Shown here piece by piece: positions 674 through 5,985 of a DNA stretch of 10,033 nt. The notes under the pieces were generated by a model, which made no database searches, had not been told where the DNA came from, and saw only the letters and a program-made list of their open reading frames with translations. The position numbers and the translations under genes are program-made. Positions within the stretch are counted from its first letter, which is position 1, and the number at the start of each line of letters is the position of its first letter. Source of the stretch: an uncultured Spirochaetales bacterium (GTDB taxonomy: Bacteria; Spirochaetota; Spirochaetia; Sphaerochaetales; Sphaerochaetaceae); the NCBI GenBank assembly GCA_934276695.1, contig CAKQTF010000026.1, positions 1 through 10,033 of the forward strand. The letters run 5' to 3'.

Positions 674-1933
674 TCAGACTCCGAGAGCTGTGATAGGAAT
701 CACATTCACGCCATCTTCCCTGCAGTATCCATATGATGAGAGGCCACAGATAACAGCAAGGAAAGCAGCGCCTTTGCCTGTTGCTTCAGTCATTGCCTTA
801 TTGGCTTTATGAAGAGTCTTTGCTGCATAATCAATCTCATTCGCTCCAAGCTTTATCTCAATTGCACCCCATGAGCCATCAGGAGCCTCAATAACCGCAT
901 CTATCTCATTATCCCTATAATCCTGATAGTGCATAAGCCGGCACCCTTTTGCTTCTGCATATATGGCCAAATCCCTTTCCACGAGCGATTCAAACAGAAA
1001 GCCGAAAGCCTGAAGGTCATTTATAAGTGATTCAGGCCTCAGCCCCAGCAATGCTGCAGGAATCGAAGGATCAGCAAAATGCCTCTTCGCCATCTGCTTA
1101 AGCCTTAGGGATGATCTTACAGAAGGGCTGAATGGAAGCTGAGGAGACAGCAGGAATAATCTGGATAGGATCTGAAGATAGGAGCTCACTGTCTCATCGC
1201 TTATTTCACCATTCATATCACGGATAAGAACACGTTTAGAAGCTGTCGTGCTTTCATTGCGGGCAAGAGAACGCATAAAGCGCTCCATCTTCAGGATATC
1301 AATAGAATCAGCCACACGTGGGATGTCCTCATGTATAATGCCATTCACATAATCAGAAGCAAACGACGAAGCATGTTCATATGGAAGGTCAAGAGCTGAT
1401 GGCCAGCCACCTCTGATGACATAATATGCAAGCCTTTCTATGCCAGGACTATCACATTGGATAACACTCTGTATGCTGCTATCAAACAGGGATGATAAAG
1501 ATATCTCTCCTGTTGATTCTCCTGATTCGAATAGTGACATCGTCTTCATTGTGAGAAGGGAAATCCTTCCCGTACCTGAATGCATGATGCCACTACGTTC
1601 AGGAGTTGAAGATCCAGTAAGTATGAACTGGCCTTTCTCCTGGGATTTATCAACAGAATAACGTACAACATCCCATAAGGACGGGATTTCCTGCCATTCA
1701 TCTATCAGATGAGGCATCTTGCCTTTTAATGCAAATGAATTATCAAGCATGGCAACTCTTCGATTAGCAAAATTACCGCTTCCATCACCAAGCATGATTG
1801 AACTTGCTGCCTGATTGATTGCTGTCCATGTTTTTCCGGAAGCCTTAGGTCCCTGTATGCATACAGCTTTCGAAAGCTGTAATTTAGTCTTCAGCTCATC
1901 ATCAATAATCCTTGGTCTATATAATTCATTCAT
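674..1933 (-). CDS. AAA-type ATPase with DUF4143 C-terminal region
   Basis: A 419-residue protein of the widespread ATPase/DUF4143 family. Visible in order: Walker A GPKASGKT (28-35), Walker B with the family motif IDEWQ (77-81), a sensor-like strand LTGSS (105-109), and the alpha-helical DUF4143 region (about 190-345) with helix-turn-helix-like text ISDETVSSYLQIL and the signature KRHFADPSIPAALLG. A C-terminal nuclease-like fold follows, with D345 in NEIDAVIE and E359-x-K361 in IEIKLG. These last residues match the PD-(D/E)xK pattern, but activity is unproven. The length is normal for the family and no damage is seen. The biological role of these proteins is poorly known. The start was placed at ATG 1933; a GTG at 1936 directly precedes it. 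No strong Shine-Dalgarno is visible, and a possible promoter lies so close that the mRNA may be nearly leaderless. The gene stands alone, with three phased repeats upstream and convergent to rubredoxin. Confidence 0.9.
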   Translation of the reverse strand: MNELYRPRIIDDELKTKLQLSKAVCIQGPKASGKTWTAINQAASSIMLGDGSGNFANRRVAMLDNSFALKGKMPHLIDEWQEIPSLWDVVRYSVDKSQEKGQFILTGSSTPERSGIMHSGTGRISLLTMKTMSLFESGESTGEISLSSLFDSSIQSVIQCDSPGIERLAYYVIRGGWPSALDLPYEHASSFASDYVNGIIHEDIPRVADSIDILKMERFMRSLARNESTTASKRVLIRDMNGEISDETVSSYLQILSRLFLLSPQLPFSPSVRSSLRLKQMAKRHFADPSIPAALLGLRPESLINDLQAFGFLFESLVERDLAIYAEAKGCRLMHYQDYRDNEIDAVIEAPDGSWGAIEIKLGANEIDYAAKTLHKANKAMTEATGKGAAFLAVICGLSSYGYCREDGVNVIPITALGV

Positions 1934-1944
1934 CACAGTTACTC

Positions 1945-1973
1945 ATTCTTATTTCAACATCCGAATATGTCAA
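1945..1973 (-). promoter_or_regulatory. Candidate promoter of the DUF4143 ATPase gene
   Basis: The last of the three repeats supplies TTGACA (1973-1968). Seventeen bases on is AAGAAT (1950-1945), a mediocre -10 with four of six consensus bases. Transcription would begin near 1938, only a few bases before the start codon, giving a leaderless or nearly leaderless message. This would explain the lack of a clear ribosome binding site. Confidence 0.35.
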
Positions 1974-2022
1974 GGTCTATTATCAGAATATGTCAAAGTC
2001 AGTTATACGAATATGTCAAAGT
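1963..2022. repeat. Three direct repeats phased at exactly 23 bp
   Basis: The 14-bp core GAATATGTCAA(A/G)GT occurs at 1963-1976, 1986-1999 and 2009-2022, each start 23 bases from the next; spacers are 9 bp and differ in sequence. Read on the minus strand each copy is AC(T/C)TTGACATATTC, so each contains a consensus -35 hexamer TTGACA pointing at the ATPase gene. A period of 23 bp is close to two helical turns and puts all copies on nearly the same face of DNA. This looks like a regulator-binding array for the ATPase gene, not a coding repeat. Three copies with 9-bp spacers do not make a CRISPR array. Confidence 0.8.
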
Positions 2023-2058
2023 AAGTCTTATAGATTCATAAAATATCAGGACAGAGAA

Positions 2059-2111: not shown

Positions 2112-3851
2112 TCATACTCTTTGAGACATATCCTTTATGCTTCCATCATCATTGTATGAGATCAGAAGCGCATTCGTCAGATATGAGCGTCCGCTCAGAT
2201 CAGAATCAGCTGTCTTTGAATACGAATAATCTACCTTATCAGATCCATAGCAGATCACAAGGTATACAGTGCCAGATACATCAACAAATCTATACTTATA
2301 CCCCTCTGCAGAAACTGTCGTAACTGTATTCCATCCTATGTCTGACAGTTCAGGAATTCCGCTCTTCTCTGCATCTGTATCCGAGATTGCCTTAGCCTTA
2401 TATGCCTTTTCCTCACTGCTGACGTTAATTGTCAGGGTGTTGGAATTGGTCTGTGCAATGCAATCTGATGAGCCCTTCTTAAACCAGTATACAGAAGGAA
2501 GGAAAAGCTTAAGCTGGTATATTCCATCAGAAGGCAGCACGAATTCACCATTAGCAGCTGGCATAGCAAGGCTGAGCTTAGAGTCAAAGCTTGCCACTGG
2601 GCTACCTGAGATTCCATCGATATTTTCACTTTTGCTGTTACCGTAGCTGAGAGATGAACTACCTGAGGATGCCTTGATTGTGCCATTGTTGACGACACTA
2701 TCTGCGGAGATCCTGTTATATCTGCTGGCTGAGACATTAGCAGCAAGAAGGCCGACCTTGTAGCCTACGAGATCACCGGAGAATGTGCAGTTATTTATTT
2801 CAGCCTTTGCACCGTAAAGCTGCCCGCCAAGGAACACTGCAGCGCCAGAATCGCCAAAACCTCCGATGAAATTTCCCGATACATCACATCCGGAAATGCT
2901 GATGCTGTATTCAATGCTCTTATTCACGCTCTCATCATAGAACAGGCATGTAGTGTAAGATGGTATTGTCTCACCATTCAGATAAACATCCACACCACTG
3001 ACATTGTTTGATGCATAGAAGCTGAAATTGTTGTCACCGATTGAGTAGTAATGGTTACCAGGTGCAGCATAATTCACATTATCGATAGTCAGGGAAAGCG
3101 TTCTCTTGTCCGTCAGGAATCTATCGGATGAGCCTCCAAGATCGTCGCCTTCACTTGTATATTCATTTCCCTTTGCAATAGCATTTTTGACTCTGACCAG
3201 CGGAGACCTGAACAGCCTTGTGATTGAAGCTGAGTCGAACTCTATCGTCAGATTCCTGAACTCTGTATCCTCAAGGTAGTGATCAAAGATGAAGGAAAGT
3301 GAGTTGCTTCCGATTATCTTATGGCCATTACCTTCAAGAGTTCCTCCGAAGACTGGAGCAGCATAATTCCTATCTTCTATTGATCTGAGATCAATATCAT
3401 CTGTAAGGCAGAAGGAATAGCCGTCTCTTTCAAGGATTGCAGACCTGTTGAGATTAAGCTTATCAAAGTCATCTGCACTACTGAGCTCATATGGCCTGTT
3501 CTTTGTGCCGAACCCCGCAAAGATACCATCTAATGGCATCTCTTCAGCCTTGAAGCTGGATACTATAGCAAGTCCGTTCTGGGCCTTATATGTAATCTCA
3601 TATGTACCTCTTTTAAGTATGATCTGATCTCCGGATACAGATACATCAGATGTGACGCCATCAGGATCCGTATATTTCACTTCTGCAGTCACAGGGACTC
3701 CTGAAGTCGTTGCGACGGCTACTGCGAACGACTCGCCTGCCTTATATGATGAACCGGTATTAATCTCACCAAGTGAAATCGGCTCAGATGTGCATGAAAC
3801 AGCTGCAATGATGAGAATCAGAGCAGAGACATAGTGTAAAATTCTTTTCAT
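2112..3851 (-). CDS. Large predicted lipoprotein with GLUG/beta-helix-like repeats
   Basis: A 579-residue protein exported as a lipoprotein: basic MKR start, hydrophobic stretch (about 4-17), and lipobox A-V-S-C with the acylated cysteine at C20. Residues about 30-105 look like an Ig-like or similar beta domain. Then comes a motif typical of right-handed beta-helix/GLUG surface proteins (113-129: GFGTKNRPYELSSADDF, then CLTDDIDL and GGTLEGNGHKI). Long stretches rich in Ser, Asn and Gly follow, with repeated strand-like segments (NNVSGVDVYLNG, SISISGCDVSGNF, AEINNCTFSGDLVG). No catalytic residues are recognised, so its function is unknown; adhesion or another surface role is a guess. ATG 3851 is preceded by AAGGGG (3863-3858) at 6 bases. 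The promoter directly upstream carries a ten-G spacer, suggesting variable expression. It is monocistronic, with a hairpin after the stop. Confidence 0.85.
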   Translation of the reverse strand: MKRILHYVSALILIIAAVSCTSEPISLGEINTGSSYKAGESFAVAVATTSGVPVTAEVKYTDPDGVTSDVSVSGDQIILKRGTYEITYKAQNGLAIVSSFKAEEMPLDGIFAGFGTKNRPYELSSADDFDKLNLNRSAILERDGYSFCLTDDIDLRSIEDRNYAAPVFGGTLEGNGHKIIGSNSLSFIFDHYLEDTEFRNLTIEFDSASITRLFRSPLVRVKNAIAKGNEYTSEGDDLGGSSDRFLTDKRTLSLTIDNVNYAAPGNHYYSIGDNNFSFYASNNVSGVDVYLNGETIPSYTTCLFYDESVNKSIEYSISISGCDVSGNFIGGFGDSGAAVFLGGQLYGAKAEINNCTFSGDLVGYKVGLLAANVSASRYNRISADSVVNNGTIKASSGSSSLSYGNSKSENIDGISGSPVASFDSKLSLAMPAANGEFVLPSDGIYQLKLFLPSVYWFKKGSSDCIAQTNSNTLTINVSSEEKAYKAKAISDTDAEKSGIPELSDIGWNTVTTVSAEGYKYRFVDVSGTVYLVICYGSDKVDYSYSKTADSDLSGRSYLTNALLISYNDDGSIKDMSQRV

Positions 3852-3869
3852 TCTAAACCCCTTGCTCCA

Positions 3870-3900
3870 AATATACCCCCCCCCCGTTCTATATTGTCAA
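3870..3900 (-). promoter_or_regulatory. Lipoprotein promoter with a poly-G spacer
   Basis: On the minus strand TTGACA (3900-3895) and TATATT (3875-3870) are 19 bases apart, and the ten bases next to the -10 are all G. The predicted start near 3863 gives a 12-base leader in which AAGGGG is the ribosome binding site. The second lipoprotein gene has the same two hexamers and nearly the same leader length (5956-5985), which supports this placement. An alternative -10, TATAGA (3893-3888), would put the G tract at the transcription start, but it lacks a -35. Confidence 0.7.
3876..3885. repeat. Homopolymeric tract of ten G (minus strand)
   Basis: Ten consecutive C on the plus strand, the only such tract in the window. 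It lies wholly between the -35 and -10 elements of the promoter for the 579-residue lipoprotein. Tracts of this kind change length by slipped-strand mispairing during replication. Confidence 0.95.
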
Positions 3901-3928: not shown

Positions 3929-4542
3929 GCTCTTTACGGAAAAATAGGGGAAAAGGAATAAGCAGTAGAAAAAAGAGCATGTGAGTTCTAAAGTTTAGTT
4001 ACCACACTAACAGAAGAACTGACACATGCCCGTAAATCTCTTCCGCAGGGCTGTGAACACATACATACCACCTGATGGGAAGCATGGATTGCAGTATTTC
4101 AGGAGCAACAGGGCAGACAGGAGAGGATGCCCAAACTGCGGAGGGCATGCCTGCGGCAGCTGCAGCACACGGCTAAGAGACATGCCGGTATATGCGGATA
4201 CCAGGCAGGGTCTGCTGATCAGCTGCTATAGATACAGATGCACAGGATGCTCGAGGACATTCAGAGATGAGTCACATCCAGGCATCCAGGATAACTGGAA
4301 AAGCGTGGCAATGGATATGAACGCCTCATACAATATCCTCGTCAGGCAGTACCTACCGGATACACGGACAGTATATGATCATTCCCGATATTCACAGGGA
4401 ATATTAAAGGATTCAACACCAGGATTAAGGTTGTAAAGAGAATTGGATATGGATACAGGGACGATGACTATTTCTTTTCCCTTATCCGCTGCATCTCTAT
4501 CCCTTCGTTAAAACCTAAATCCCCTATGAAAACGTGAATAAC
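3929..4542 (+). mobile_element. ISL3-family insertion sequence, internally deleted remnant
   Basis: About 614 bp bounded by imperfect inverted repeats. The left end reads GCTCTTTACG then GAAAA then ATAGGGG (3929-3950). The reverse of the right end reads GTTATTCACG then TTTTC then ATAGGGG (4542-4521). It encloses remnants of one transposase (4026-4537) too short to be active. ISL3 elements are normally about 1.2-1.5 kb with ends of this GG(C/T)TCTT style. The flanks share AAAAAT (3920-3925 and 4545-4550), but a clean 8-bp target duplication could not be fixed, so the ends are approximate. It sits 29 bases upstream of the -35 of the poly-G promoter, between two lipoprotein genes. Confidence 0.7.
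4026..4537 (+). pseudogene. ISL3-family transposase, two internal deletions
   Basis: Three separate parts of an ISL3 transposase are joined. The first open frame (4026-4436, 136 residues) begins with the family's zinc ribbon (CPNCGG, then CYRYRCTGCSRTFRDESHP). After residue about 88 it jumps straight into a piece of the catalytic domain (VAMDMNASYNILV, then LPDTRTVYDH), where the intact enzyme has a helix-turn-helix region and the first catalytic aspartate. A second gap follows, and the frame shifts. From 4403 to the TGA at 4535-4537 a different frame reads the family's C-terminal end (IKGFNTRIKVVKRIGYGYRD, then DYFFSLIRCISIP). About 300 of the usual 400-odd residues are lost, so the protein cannot transpose by itself. 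The start codon is only a guess; no good ribosome binding site is seen. Confidence 0.82.
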
Positions 4543-4613: not shown

Positions 4614-5936
4614 TTATTTCACAACCCAGCGTTTATTGCTTTTATCGTCTGTTATACTCACATCATCATTGATATAGCCATCAGGAGATGAATTGAATGT
4701 TCCGGCTTTTATTACTTTCTTTTCCTTTATGCTATTAAGCTTAATGGCAGCCTTTGATTCATTGCCAATAAACTCTCCACCATTGATTGCAAGCTTAACA
4801 TAGCTTTCTTCTGCAACAGGTTCCGTTGTTCCTTTGCCATTTGGAATACCCTCATATACAGCATATCCATTCACGCTCTCAAACTTTCCTCCATTGACAG
4901 TAACATCAAGCTTCTTTGCATATACATCATTACTCGTCATAGATAATGCAGCACCGGTATCTACACTTCCGCTAGAAGTATCCTCCGGGGTCTCAGCAAA
5001 TTTACCAGTAGATATATAACGGCCACCATCAATGATGAATTCTCCAGCTCTAAGGCTTAATGCATAATCTGCTTCGATATCAGAATTCCTGATATTCCAT
5101 TTTGCATATCCAGCTGCATAAATGCCAATCTCTCTCGCTTTAATAGAAGCTCCATCCAATGTGATTACAGGGACGCAGCCTTCTGTATCTTTAATATCAC
5201 CATGGATATAAATGCCGGCACCGGCAGCATGATCATCTTCTGATGGAACTATGATTCTGCCATACATATTAACAACTATGCCATATGCATGAGATAAACT
5301 TGGATAAATGAAGATTCCGGCCCATCCTTTCAAGGTAACATCCTGTCCTATTGTTACAACAGAATAATCAGGCACATCTTCTGAAGCACCTATAATGTAA
5401 ATCGATGATTTCCCATTTGATTCTGTTTCCTTTATTATACCTTCACCCTTGAACTCCACATTGGCATTATATATTTGGAATGGTGTTGATTTAGCTGAAA
5501 TGCTATGTCCATTGAGATTGATGGCAACTTTCACTCTATTTGTTATCACCAATGTATTCTCAAGCGATATATCTGATGCCAGGCATATTCTTTCTTTATT
5601 CCCAGATATAGCACTTATCAGCTCGGCTTCAGTACTGACAGTTACAAAGTCTTCCTTCCATACAGCAGCTAGAGTTATATCTGAAGTGACTGCAGATGAG
5701 AAATCATATCGCTCTCCATTAAGCTGCCATTCAATGAAAGAATACCATTCCCTGACAGGATCAGCTGGCTTTACTGCCTTCTCGCCTTCTTTAACCCCAA
5801 TCGGGCTGATTCCAGAACCGCCTGAAGTATCAAAAGAAATAACATATTCTGGAACAGCTGGTTCATTTGCACATGCTGCAACAAAGAGCATTACCAGAAT
5901 TGCAAGTACTAAAACGGAAAAATATCTATTTCTCAT
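4614..5936 (-). CDS. Lipoprotein with Listeria-Bacteroides repeat and beta-helix-like body
   Basis: A 440-residue exported lipoprotein. MRNRYF is followed by a hydrophobic stretch and the lipobox V-A-A-C with the acylated cysteine at C22. Residues about 30-92 are one Listeria-Bacteroides (InlB B-type) repeat, with the signature ISFDTSGGSGISP, an EGEKAVKPADPVREW turn, and the closing ITLAAVW. Residues about 95-430 are strand-rich with recurring short turns typical of a right-handed beta-helix (INLNGHSIS, IDGGRYIS, VNGGKFES, INGGEFIG). No catalytic site is recognised, so its function is unknown; a cell-surface role is likely. The start is set at ATG 5936: it has GAGGG (5946-5942) at 5 bases, whereas the upstream in-frame ATG at 5966 has none, lies between the -35 and -10 of the promoter, and would put ten charged and polar residues before the signal peptide. 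Confidence 0.86.
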   Translation of the reverse strand: MRNRYFSVLVLAILVMLFVAACANEPAVPEYVISFDTSGGSGISPIGVKEGEKAVKPADPVREWYSFIEWQLNGERYDFSSAVTSDITLAAVWKEDFVTVSTEAELISAISGNKERICLASDISLENTLVITNRVKVAINLNGHSISAKSTPFQIYNANVEFKGEGIIKETESNGKSSIYIIGASEDVPDYSVVTIGQDVTLKGWAGIFIYPSLSHAYGIVVNMYGRIIVPSEDDHAAGAGIYIHGDIKDTEGCVPVITLDGASIKAREIGIYAAGYAKWNIRNSDIEADYALSLRAGEFIIDGGRYISTGKFAETPEDTSSGSVDTGAALSMTSNDVYAKKLDVTVNGGKFESVNGYAVYEGIPNGKGTTEPVAEESYVKLAINGGEFIGNESKAAIKLNSIKEKKVIKAGTFNSSPDGYINDDVSITDDKSNKRWVVK

Positions 5937-5955: not shown

Positions 5956-5985
5956 AATATATCCATGCCTGATTATCAATGTCAA
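5956..5985 (-). promoter_or_regulatory. Promoter of the second lipoprotein gene
   Basis: TTGACA (5985-5980) and TATATT (5961-5956) are 18 bases apart on the minus strand. The start would fall near 5949, giving a leader of about 13 bases that contains the GAGGG ribosome binding site. It is the fixed-spacer counterpart of the poly-G promoter at 3870-3900. The rest of the gap (5986-6126) is AT-rich and shows nothing else I can name. Confidence 0.7.

What the first reader, a model, noticed from the sequence alone, without database searches (positions are those of the whole stretch)
3870..3900. Poly-G spacer promoter: candidate phase-variable lipoprotein
Seen: TTGACA and TATATT on the minus strand are 19 bases apart and ten of those bases are an uninterrupted G run, directly before a 579-residue surface-type lipoprotein. 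Known: poly-C/G tracts between -35 and -10 tune or switch surface-protein promoters in Neisseria (porA, opc), and poly-G length modulates tpr promoters in Treponema pallidum. Inference: the present 19-base spacing is suboptimal, and loss of two G would give the ideal 17, so the population may contain on, weak and off variants.
Basis: partly seen in the sequence, partly recalled or inferred. Interest (0 to 1): 0.75.

Follow-up and report, generated by a model that had tools for sequence, protein, structure and literature searches.

The report
Poly-G switch promoter for surface lipoprotein
A run of ten G's sits inside the on-switch of a surface-protein gene in an uncultured spirochaete, and related bacteria carry many copies of the same arrangement in front of lipoprotein genes, which suggests that they randomly vary their surface proteins by slippage of the G runs.

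Summary
It is the only G/C run of 6 or more in the window, and one copy of a dispersed promoter family. In the family of Sphaerochaeta sp. Phil3, 50 of 139 genomes carry TTGACA-N-G8+ (reversed control: 4 hits); C8 instead of G8 gave 13 hits in 11 of 139. Among 147 fetched copies a TAnnnT hexamer abuts the tract in 129; 120 of 133 assessable copies precede a predicted lipoprotein, against 9 of 114 control ORFs. Near-identical copies differ in tract length in 10 of 13 pairs. Coding G tracts in two relatives are partly in, partly out of frame. Slippage-driven phase variation is the best explanation. Length variation in this species, transcription start and promoter activity could not be tested. 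Closest known: T. pallidum tp0126. New here: scale, lipoprotein focus, uncultured non-pallidum hosts.

The parts
3895..3900 (-). -35 hexamer TTGACA
   Evidence: Sequence. In a census of G8+ tracts in two relatives chosen without regard to TTGACA, 19 of 43 tracts follow exact TTGACA (classified by eye).
3886..3894 (-). Non-G part of the spacer, ATATAGAAC (ends in AAC)
   Evidence: In 147 copies the bases before the tract favour A/T-A-C or A/T-A-C-C; near twin ATATTGAAC in L126.
3876..3885 (-). G10 tract (C10 on the + strand)
   Evidence: only G/C run of 6 or more in the window.
3870..3875 (-). -10 hexamer TATATT, directly abutting the tract
   Evidence: TAnnnT abuts the tract in 129 of 147 copies, TATATT itself in 8.
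3852..3869 (-). Leader of 18 nt with Shine-Dalgarno candidates GGAG (3868-3865) and AAGGGG (3863-3858)
   Evidence: Tract-to-ATG distance is 24 nt, at the 5th percentile of 120 measurable copies (median 38), so a transcript starting about 7 nt after the -10 would have a short leader (inference).
2112..3851 (-). Predicted lipoprotein gene, 579 aa
   Evidence: ORF; signal MKRILHYVSALILIIAAVSC; no Pfam family; four homologues at 29-35% identity; 9 of 139 family genomes match; beta-rich model, mean pLDDT 69.4.
5956..5985 (-). Tract-free comparison promoter TTGACA-18-TATATT
4614..5936 (-). Neighbouring predicted lipoprotein gene (start MRNRYFSVLVLAILVMLFVAACA) behind the tract-free promoter
   Evidence: ORF; Pfam PF09479, E 1e-11.

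Best explanation
This is a sigma-70-type promoter whose -35/-10 spacer holds a slippage-prone G tract. In replication the G10 run gains or loses single G's. Each change alters the distance and rotation between TTGACA and TATATT by one base pair and so changes RNA polymerase binding and the amount of a surface lipoprotein made, reversibly and from cell to cell. The locus is one member of a dispersed set of such promoters that these spirochaetes place mostly in front of lipoprotein genes; a second set of G tracts lies inside surface-type genes and would switch by reading frame. Shown here: the arrangement, its recurrence, the lipoprotein bias, tract-length differences between near-identical copies, and coding tracts in and out of frame. 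Inferred: slippage in living cells, the effect on transcription, surface exposure. Which length is strongest is open.
For: TTGACA-N3..13-G8 in 50 of 139 family genomes, reversed control 4 hits in 3 genomes; counted once per tract, 95 in 13 of 13 genomes and 84 in 18 of 19 genomes, reversed control 0; C8 version 13 hits in 11 of 139, its reversed control 5. TAnnnT abuts the tract in 129 of 147 copies. 120 of 133 assessable copies precede a predicted lipoprotein, against 9 of 114 control ORFs. 10 of 13 near-identical promoter pairs differ in tract length. Of 9 coding tracts in two genomes, 5 are in frame and 4 out of frame from the best ATG. Near twin of this promoter in L126. Known precedent in T. 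pallidum (passages of PMC7864442).
Against: No length variation, transcript start or activity is shown for this locus. Assembled lengths of G tracts are unreliable (passages of PMC9187656), which could make part of the length differences. For two of the four out-of-frame coding tracts a non-ATG start would be in frame (L105, L109). The dominance of 18-19 nt spacing is not what a 17-nt optimum predicts. In H. pylori sabA a promoter T tract does not act as a mere spacer (passages of PMC4081817). 89 of 139 family genomes lack the pattern.
Confidence: 0.78

Rival explanations
1. The G tract is a fixed promoter element, for example a regulator-binding or DNA-shape motif shared by a lipoprotein regulon, and its length is not used for switching.
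For: The flanks are strongly patterned: A/T-A-C before the tract, TAG-any-C/A-T after it, and 78 of 147 tracts are exactly G9.
Against: Tracts run from 8 to 14; near-identical copies differ in length (10 of 13 pairs); G tracts also lie inside surface-type genes, where no promoter motif is needed.
Confidence: 0.12
2. The tract varies, but acts through something other than -35/-10 spacing, such as the start of transcription, the leader or a G-rich DNA structure, as may hold for T. pallidum tpr genes where the start lies four bases after the tract.
For: T. pallidum tprL starts at the fourth base after its poly-G (passages of PMC7864442); a promoter T tract of H. pylori sabA is not a mere spacer (passages of PMC4081817); the window's leader is short.
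Against: A -10-like TAnnnT abuts the tract in 129 of 147 copies with A 94% and last T 94%, and in two relatives 19 of 43 G8+ tracts follow exact TTGACA, so the tract lies where a spacer should.
Confidence: 0.08
3. Chance or artefact: the two hexamers are coincidental and the G run is a neutral or mis-assembled homopolymer.
For: The hexamer pair alone is expected about once per window, and G-tract lengths in assemblies are uncertain (passages of PMC9187656).
Against: The arrangement recurs in 50 of 139 genomes with 4 reversed hits and 120 of 133 copies precede predicted lipoproteins. In 164 kb of family DNA not fetched for tracts, G/C runs of 6 or more number 4, one of them 8 long.
Confidence: 0.02

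Closest known systems
tp0126 (OmpW homologue) promoter of Treponema pallidum
   Same: Spirochaete; poly-G of varying length between -35 and -10 before a surface-protein gene; transcription depends on length (passages of PMC7864442).
   Different: Outer-membrane protein, not a lipoprotein; best transcription reported at 17 nt, whereas 19 and 18 are commonest here; no activity measured here.
tprE, tprG, tprJ, tprL promoters of Treponema pallidum
   Same: Poly-G tracts in promoters of putative surface proteins, length variable within isolates (passages of PMC7864442).
   Different: For tprL the transcript starts four bases after the tract, whereas here a -10-like hexamer abuts the tract.
porA of Neisseria meningitidis
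   Same: Poly-G between -35 and -10 tunes a surface-protein promoter (as cited in PMC7864442, passages).
Intragenic G tracts of Bifidobacterium breve pilus genes
   Same: G-tract slippage varies a surface structure in a gut commensal (passages of PMC9187656); resembles the coding tracts.
   Different: Works by reading frame, not by promoter spacing.

Membership tests
Spacer-tract phase-variable promoter (porA / tp0126 type) | Long mononucleotide tract between -35 and -10 | tested here: met
   G10 within a 19-nt spacer.
Spacer-tract phase-variable promoter (porA / tp0126 type) | Gene encodes a surface protein | tested here: inconclusive
   Lipoprotein signal by sequence and beta-rich model; surface exposure itself not testable.
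Spacer-tract phase-variable promoter (porA / tp0126 type) | Tract length varies between or within strains | tested here: inconclusive
   Only one allele of this locus at hand; near-identical copies in relatives differ in 10 of 13 pairs.
Spacer-tract phase-variable promoter (porA / tp0126 type) | Transcript starts downstream of these hexamers | not testable with these tools
   Needs 5'-end mapping.
Spacer-tract phase-variable promoter (porA / tp0126 type) | Transcription depends on tract length | not testable with these tools
   Needs reporters or paired tract-length and transcript data.
Dispersed poly-G lipoprotein promoter family (described here) | TTGACA, short non-G stretch, G8 or more, abutting TAnnnT | tested here: met
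   Window fits; 129 of 147 TTGACA-N-G8+ copies have the abutting TAnnnT.
Dispersed poly-G lipoprotein promoter family (described here) | Lipoprotein ORF close downstream | tested here: met
   Window ORF starts 24 nt after the tract; 108 of 116 assessable copies with TAnnnT fit (the window is one of the 147).

The most novel reading that the evidence does not exclude
Spirochaetes of the Sphaerochaeta family, and some other members of the phylum, carry a genome-wide phase-variable lipoprotein system. Up to 14 genes per genome share one poly-G spacer promoter cassette that is copied among paralogues (in several copies similarity is high from the -35 onward and low upstream of it), and further surface genes carry coding G tracts. 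Independent slippage at each locus would give a combinatorial surface in uncultured, non-pallidum spirochaetes, several of them from rumen.
Probability: 0.6. Interest if true: 0.75.

Novelty: new member of a known kind. Interest (0 to 1): 0.6.

Why it matters
The spirochaete poly-G promoters found in print here are those of Treponema pallidum: all six papers listed for spirochete, poly-G, lipoprotein and phase variation have syphilis or T. pallidum as their subject by title (listing). The same layout in many other spirochaetes, at up to 14 places per genome, would make it a widespread way of varying surface lipoproteins rather than a speciality of one pathogen. It also supplies hundreds of natural variants for working out how spacer length sets promoter strength, and targets for counting tract lengths in existing gut and rumen read sets. 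Searches pairing Sphaerochaeta with phase variation or with homopolymeric found no paper in the held library, which lacks most subscription journals.

Tried and rejected
Exact promoter pattern in viral contigs: 0 matches. Own genome: none held. Lipoprotein search of 10 genomes reached through NagA: 0 of 10; the wider family search then gave 9 of 139. Close relative by DNA of the nagB-nagA-epimerase region: matches in 103 of 139 genomes, but the six best places only 65-72% identical, so no close relative. Pfam for the lipoprotein: none. Fold search: one match under E 0.001, 3n6z (titled putative IgA1 protease, Bacteroides ovatus; E 2.5e-4, TM 0.25 by query length), too weak to name a function. 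Search bias as the cause of the 18-19 nt peak (only G8 or more was sought): rejected by the G4-G8 search in 13 genomes (that pattern allowed 6-10 non-G bases only). Any homopolymer would do: C8 gives 13 hits in 11 of 139 genomes, so it is mainly G. Paper searches gave no paper whose listing describes such promoters in Sphaerochaeta; one search listed 15 of 47 and 12 of 389, so they are not exhaustive. An earlier count said 7 of 9 homologue loci hold a tract; one search shows 6 of 9 loci (7 tracts).

Full report
What is there. On the minus strand the window reads TTGACA (3900-3895), ATATAGAAC, ten G (3885-3876), TATATT (3875-3870), an 18-nt leader with Shine-Dalgarno candidates, and ATG at 3851 of a 579-aa ORF. 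The tract is the only G/C run of 6 or more in the window; a run of 10 or more arose in 1 of 300 order-1 and 0 of 300 order-2 and order-3 Markov windows. The hexamers by themselves prove little: about one such pair is expected per simulated window and two were found, both before predicted lipoprotein genes. The second, TTGACA-18-TATATT at 5985-5956, has no tract.

Whose DNA. No genome is held for the window. Its NagA is 53-63% identical to the proteins of loci L001-L008: six are labelled Sphaerochaeta or Spirochaetales and two (L002, L005) Clostridiales by their depositors; three titles say rumen. DNA of the nagB-nagA-epimerase region has matches in 103 of 139 genomes of the family of Sphaerochaeta sp. 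Phil3 (G001), the six best places at 65-72%. I take the window to be an unsampled species in or near that family; this is inference.

The gene. The protein has a lipoprotein-like signal, no Pfam family and four homologues at 29-35% identity in the protein collection. In the family 9 of 139 genomes have a match, three of them with E below 1e-60. Its model is mostly beta strands at mean pLDDT 69.4; the only solved match under E 0.001 is 3n6z, at TM 0.25. Its function beyond predicted surface lipoprotein is not established.

The lead. Six of the nine homologue loci hold G8-G9 tracts, seven in all; L053 (its gene cut by the contig end), L056 and L058 hold none. In L054 and L059 the arrangement is TTGACA-N9-G9-TATGCT or -TAGGCT before a lipoprotein start. 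In L057 the tract lies in the early coding region. In L051 and L052 it lies at the signal-peptide end of a neighbouring outer-membrane-type gene. In L055 it lies before a lipoprotein start without TTGACA.

Family-wide search. TTGACA, 3-13 nt, G8 occurs in 50 of 139 genomes; the pattern read backwards gives 4 hits in 3 genomes. Counted once per tract there are 95 in 13 of 13 genomes and 84 in 18 of 19 (G060, a match, is lost under this stricter pattern), reversed control 0 in both. The richest of these is G052 with 14. With C8 in place of G8 the family gives 13 hits in 11 of 139, reversed control 5. The other 89 genomes of the family have no match.

Anatomy of 147 copies (every unique TTGACA-N-G8+ copy in loci L051-L243 plus the window; not a random sample, because I fetched extra stretches from copy-rich genomes). 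TAnnnT abuts the tract in 129. Downstream frequencies: T 91%, A 94%, then G 69%, any, C 57% or A 24%, T 94%. Tract lengths: 8 (29), 9 (78), 10 (24), 11 (7), 12 (7), 13 (1), 14 (1). Spacers: 19 (56), 18 (30), 16 (13), 20 (11), 17 (10), others 27. Of 133 copies with at least 300 nt downstream, 120 precede a predicted lipoprotein: 108 of 116 with TAnnnT, 12 of 17 without. The 14 shorter ones were dropped. The 13 misses include a secreted protein without lipobox (L070) and one that by eye is a lipoprotein (L236). Control: 9 of 114 ORFs of at least 100 aa in eight contigs fetched by NagA similarity. The lipoprotein rule is my own pattern, not a published predictor, and many copies are paralogues. 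TTGACA is fixed by the search and is not itself evidence here.

Census without that bias. The G8+ tracts of two genomes were fetched with 43 of 43 read: 25 in G051 and 18 in G047. By eye, 19 follow exact TTGACA, 2 a one-mismatch version (L118, L119), 2 more lie before lipoprotein starts without a clear -35 (L124, L125), 9 lie inside surface-type genes, and 11 are other or near contig ends. L126 is a near twin of the window promoter (TTGACAATATTGAAC-G10-TATATT before a lipoprotein). In 164 kb of family DNA not fetched for tracts, G/C runs of 6 or more number 4.

Signs of slippage. Thirteen promoter pairs share the same non-G spacer letters and at least 70% of compared flanking bases; ten differ in tract length. 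Examples: L201/L203 G8/G11 and L142/L235 G9/G10 (two places in one genome), each with 100 of 100 downstream bases identical; L138/L151 G10/G9 with 97 of 100. The pairs overlap and are not independent, and some join different genomes (L157 with L142 and L235). In some pairs upstream identity is low (31 of 60 in L201/L203), in others high (56 of 60 in L153/L216). Of nine coding tracts five are in frame (L091, L107, L123, L128, L130; L123 and L128 without a clear Shine-Dalgarno) and four are out of frame from the best ATG (L105, L108, L109, L111); for L105 a TTG and for L109 a GTG start would be in frame. L108 is the tract of L051, out of frame there; its counterpart in L052 is in frame in both copies. 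Such a mixture is what phase-variable genes show, but assembly error in G runs could mimic part of it.

Spacing. A search for G4-G8 in the 13 genomes returned 23 rows: 11 with exactly G8, 3 with G5-G7 abutting TAnnnT, the rest interrupted or offset. Tract-free TTGACA/TATAAT-like pairs in fetched DNA number 27, with 5 at 17 and 4 at 18 (5 also at 24; reversed control 6 in all), too few to fix an optimum. Either the usual allele is a weak state or a G-rich spacer works best when slightly longer; I cannot decide.

Outside the family. 89 of 392 genomes drawn from the phylum, some of them family members, have at least one match (reversed control 14 hits). Forty non-family copies were read: of 30 from seven copy-rich genomes 17 precede lipoproteins by my rule, of 10 others none. 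Many have N6-N7 and total spacing 14-16; the five copies read from G457 have N4-N6 with G12-G16 and total 18-20. The lipoprotein bias is weaker than in the family.

What is known. Passages of PMC7864442 describe poly-G tracts in T. pallidum surface-gene promoters, including tp0126 with the tract between -35 and -10 and best transcription at 17 nt, and compare porA and opc. Passages of PMC4081817 show that the sabA T tract is not a mere spacer. Passages of PMC9187656 show G-tract slippage in a gut commensal and warn of G-tract sequencing error. Searches pairing Sphaerochaeta with phase variation or homopolymeric returned nothing; rumen, poly-G and phase variation returned one Helicobacter paper (listing). 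The mechanism is of a known kind; this promoter family was not found described in the held library.

Verdict. Very likely a slippage-tuned promoter of a surface lipoprotein and a member of a dispersed family. Observation confirmed; interpretation right in kind; the claim about the best spacing unproven.

Noticed in passing
window 1959-2027: Three tandem copies of a 23-nt repeat (ATCCGAATATGTCAAGGTCTATT and two variants, 83% and 74% identical) just upstream of the start of an AAA_14/DUF4143 gene (674-1936, minus strand).
   Followed up: no
window 4026-4436 (+): Short ORF (136 aa) with a sub-threshold match to the ISL3 transposase domain (22.7 bits, cut-off 23; 66 of 240 profile positions), possibly a transposase remnant, about 125 bp upstream of the lipoprotein promoter.
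   Followed up: partly
L093 and L096 (genomes G051, G047): Similar genes (MAYQLSPLNV...) in two genomes both have a G9-G10 tract upstream but no TTGACA and no lipobox, so the tract may serve other promoters too.
   Followed up: partly
L260, L267, L274, L281, L288 (genome G457, outside the family): Short non-G part (4-6 nt) with long tracts (G12-G16) and total spacing 18-20, as if tract length made up for the shorter spacer.
   Followed up: partly
L201/L203, L142/L235, L223/L226: Copies 95-100% identical downstream of the tract but only 31-45 of 60 bases alike upstream of the -35, as if a promoter-plus-gene-start cassette were copied among paralogues; other pairs are alike on both sides.
   Followed up: partly
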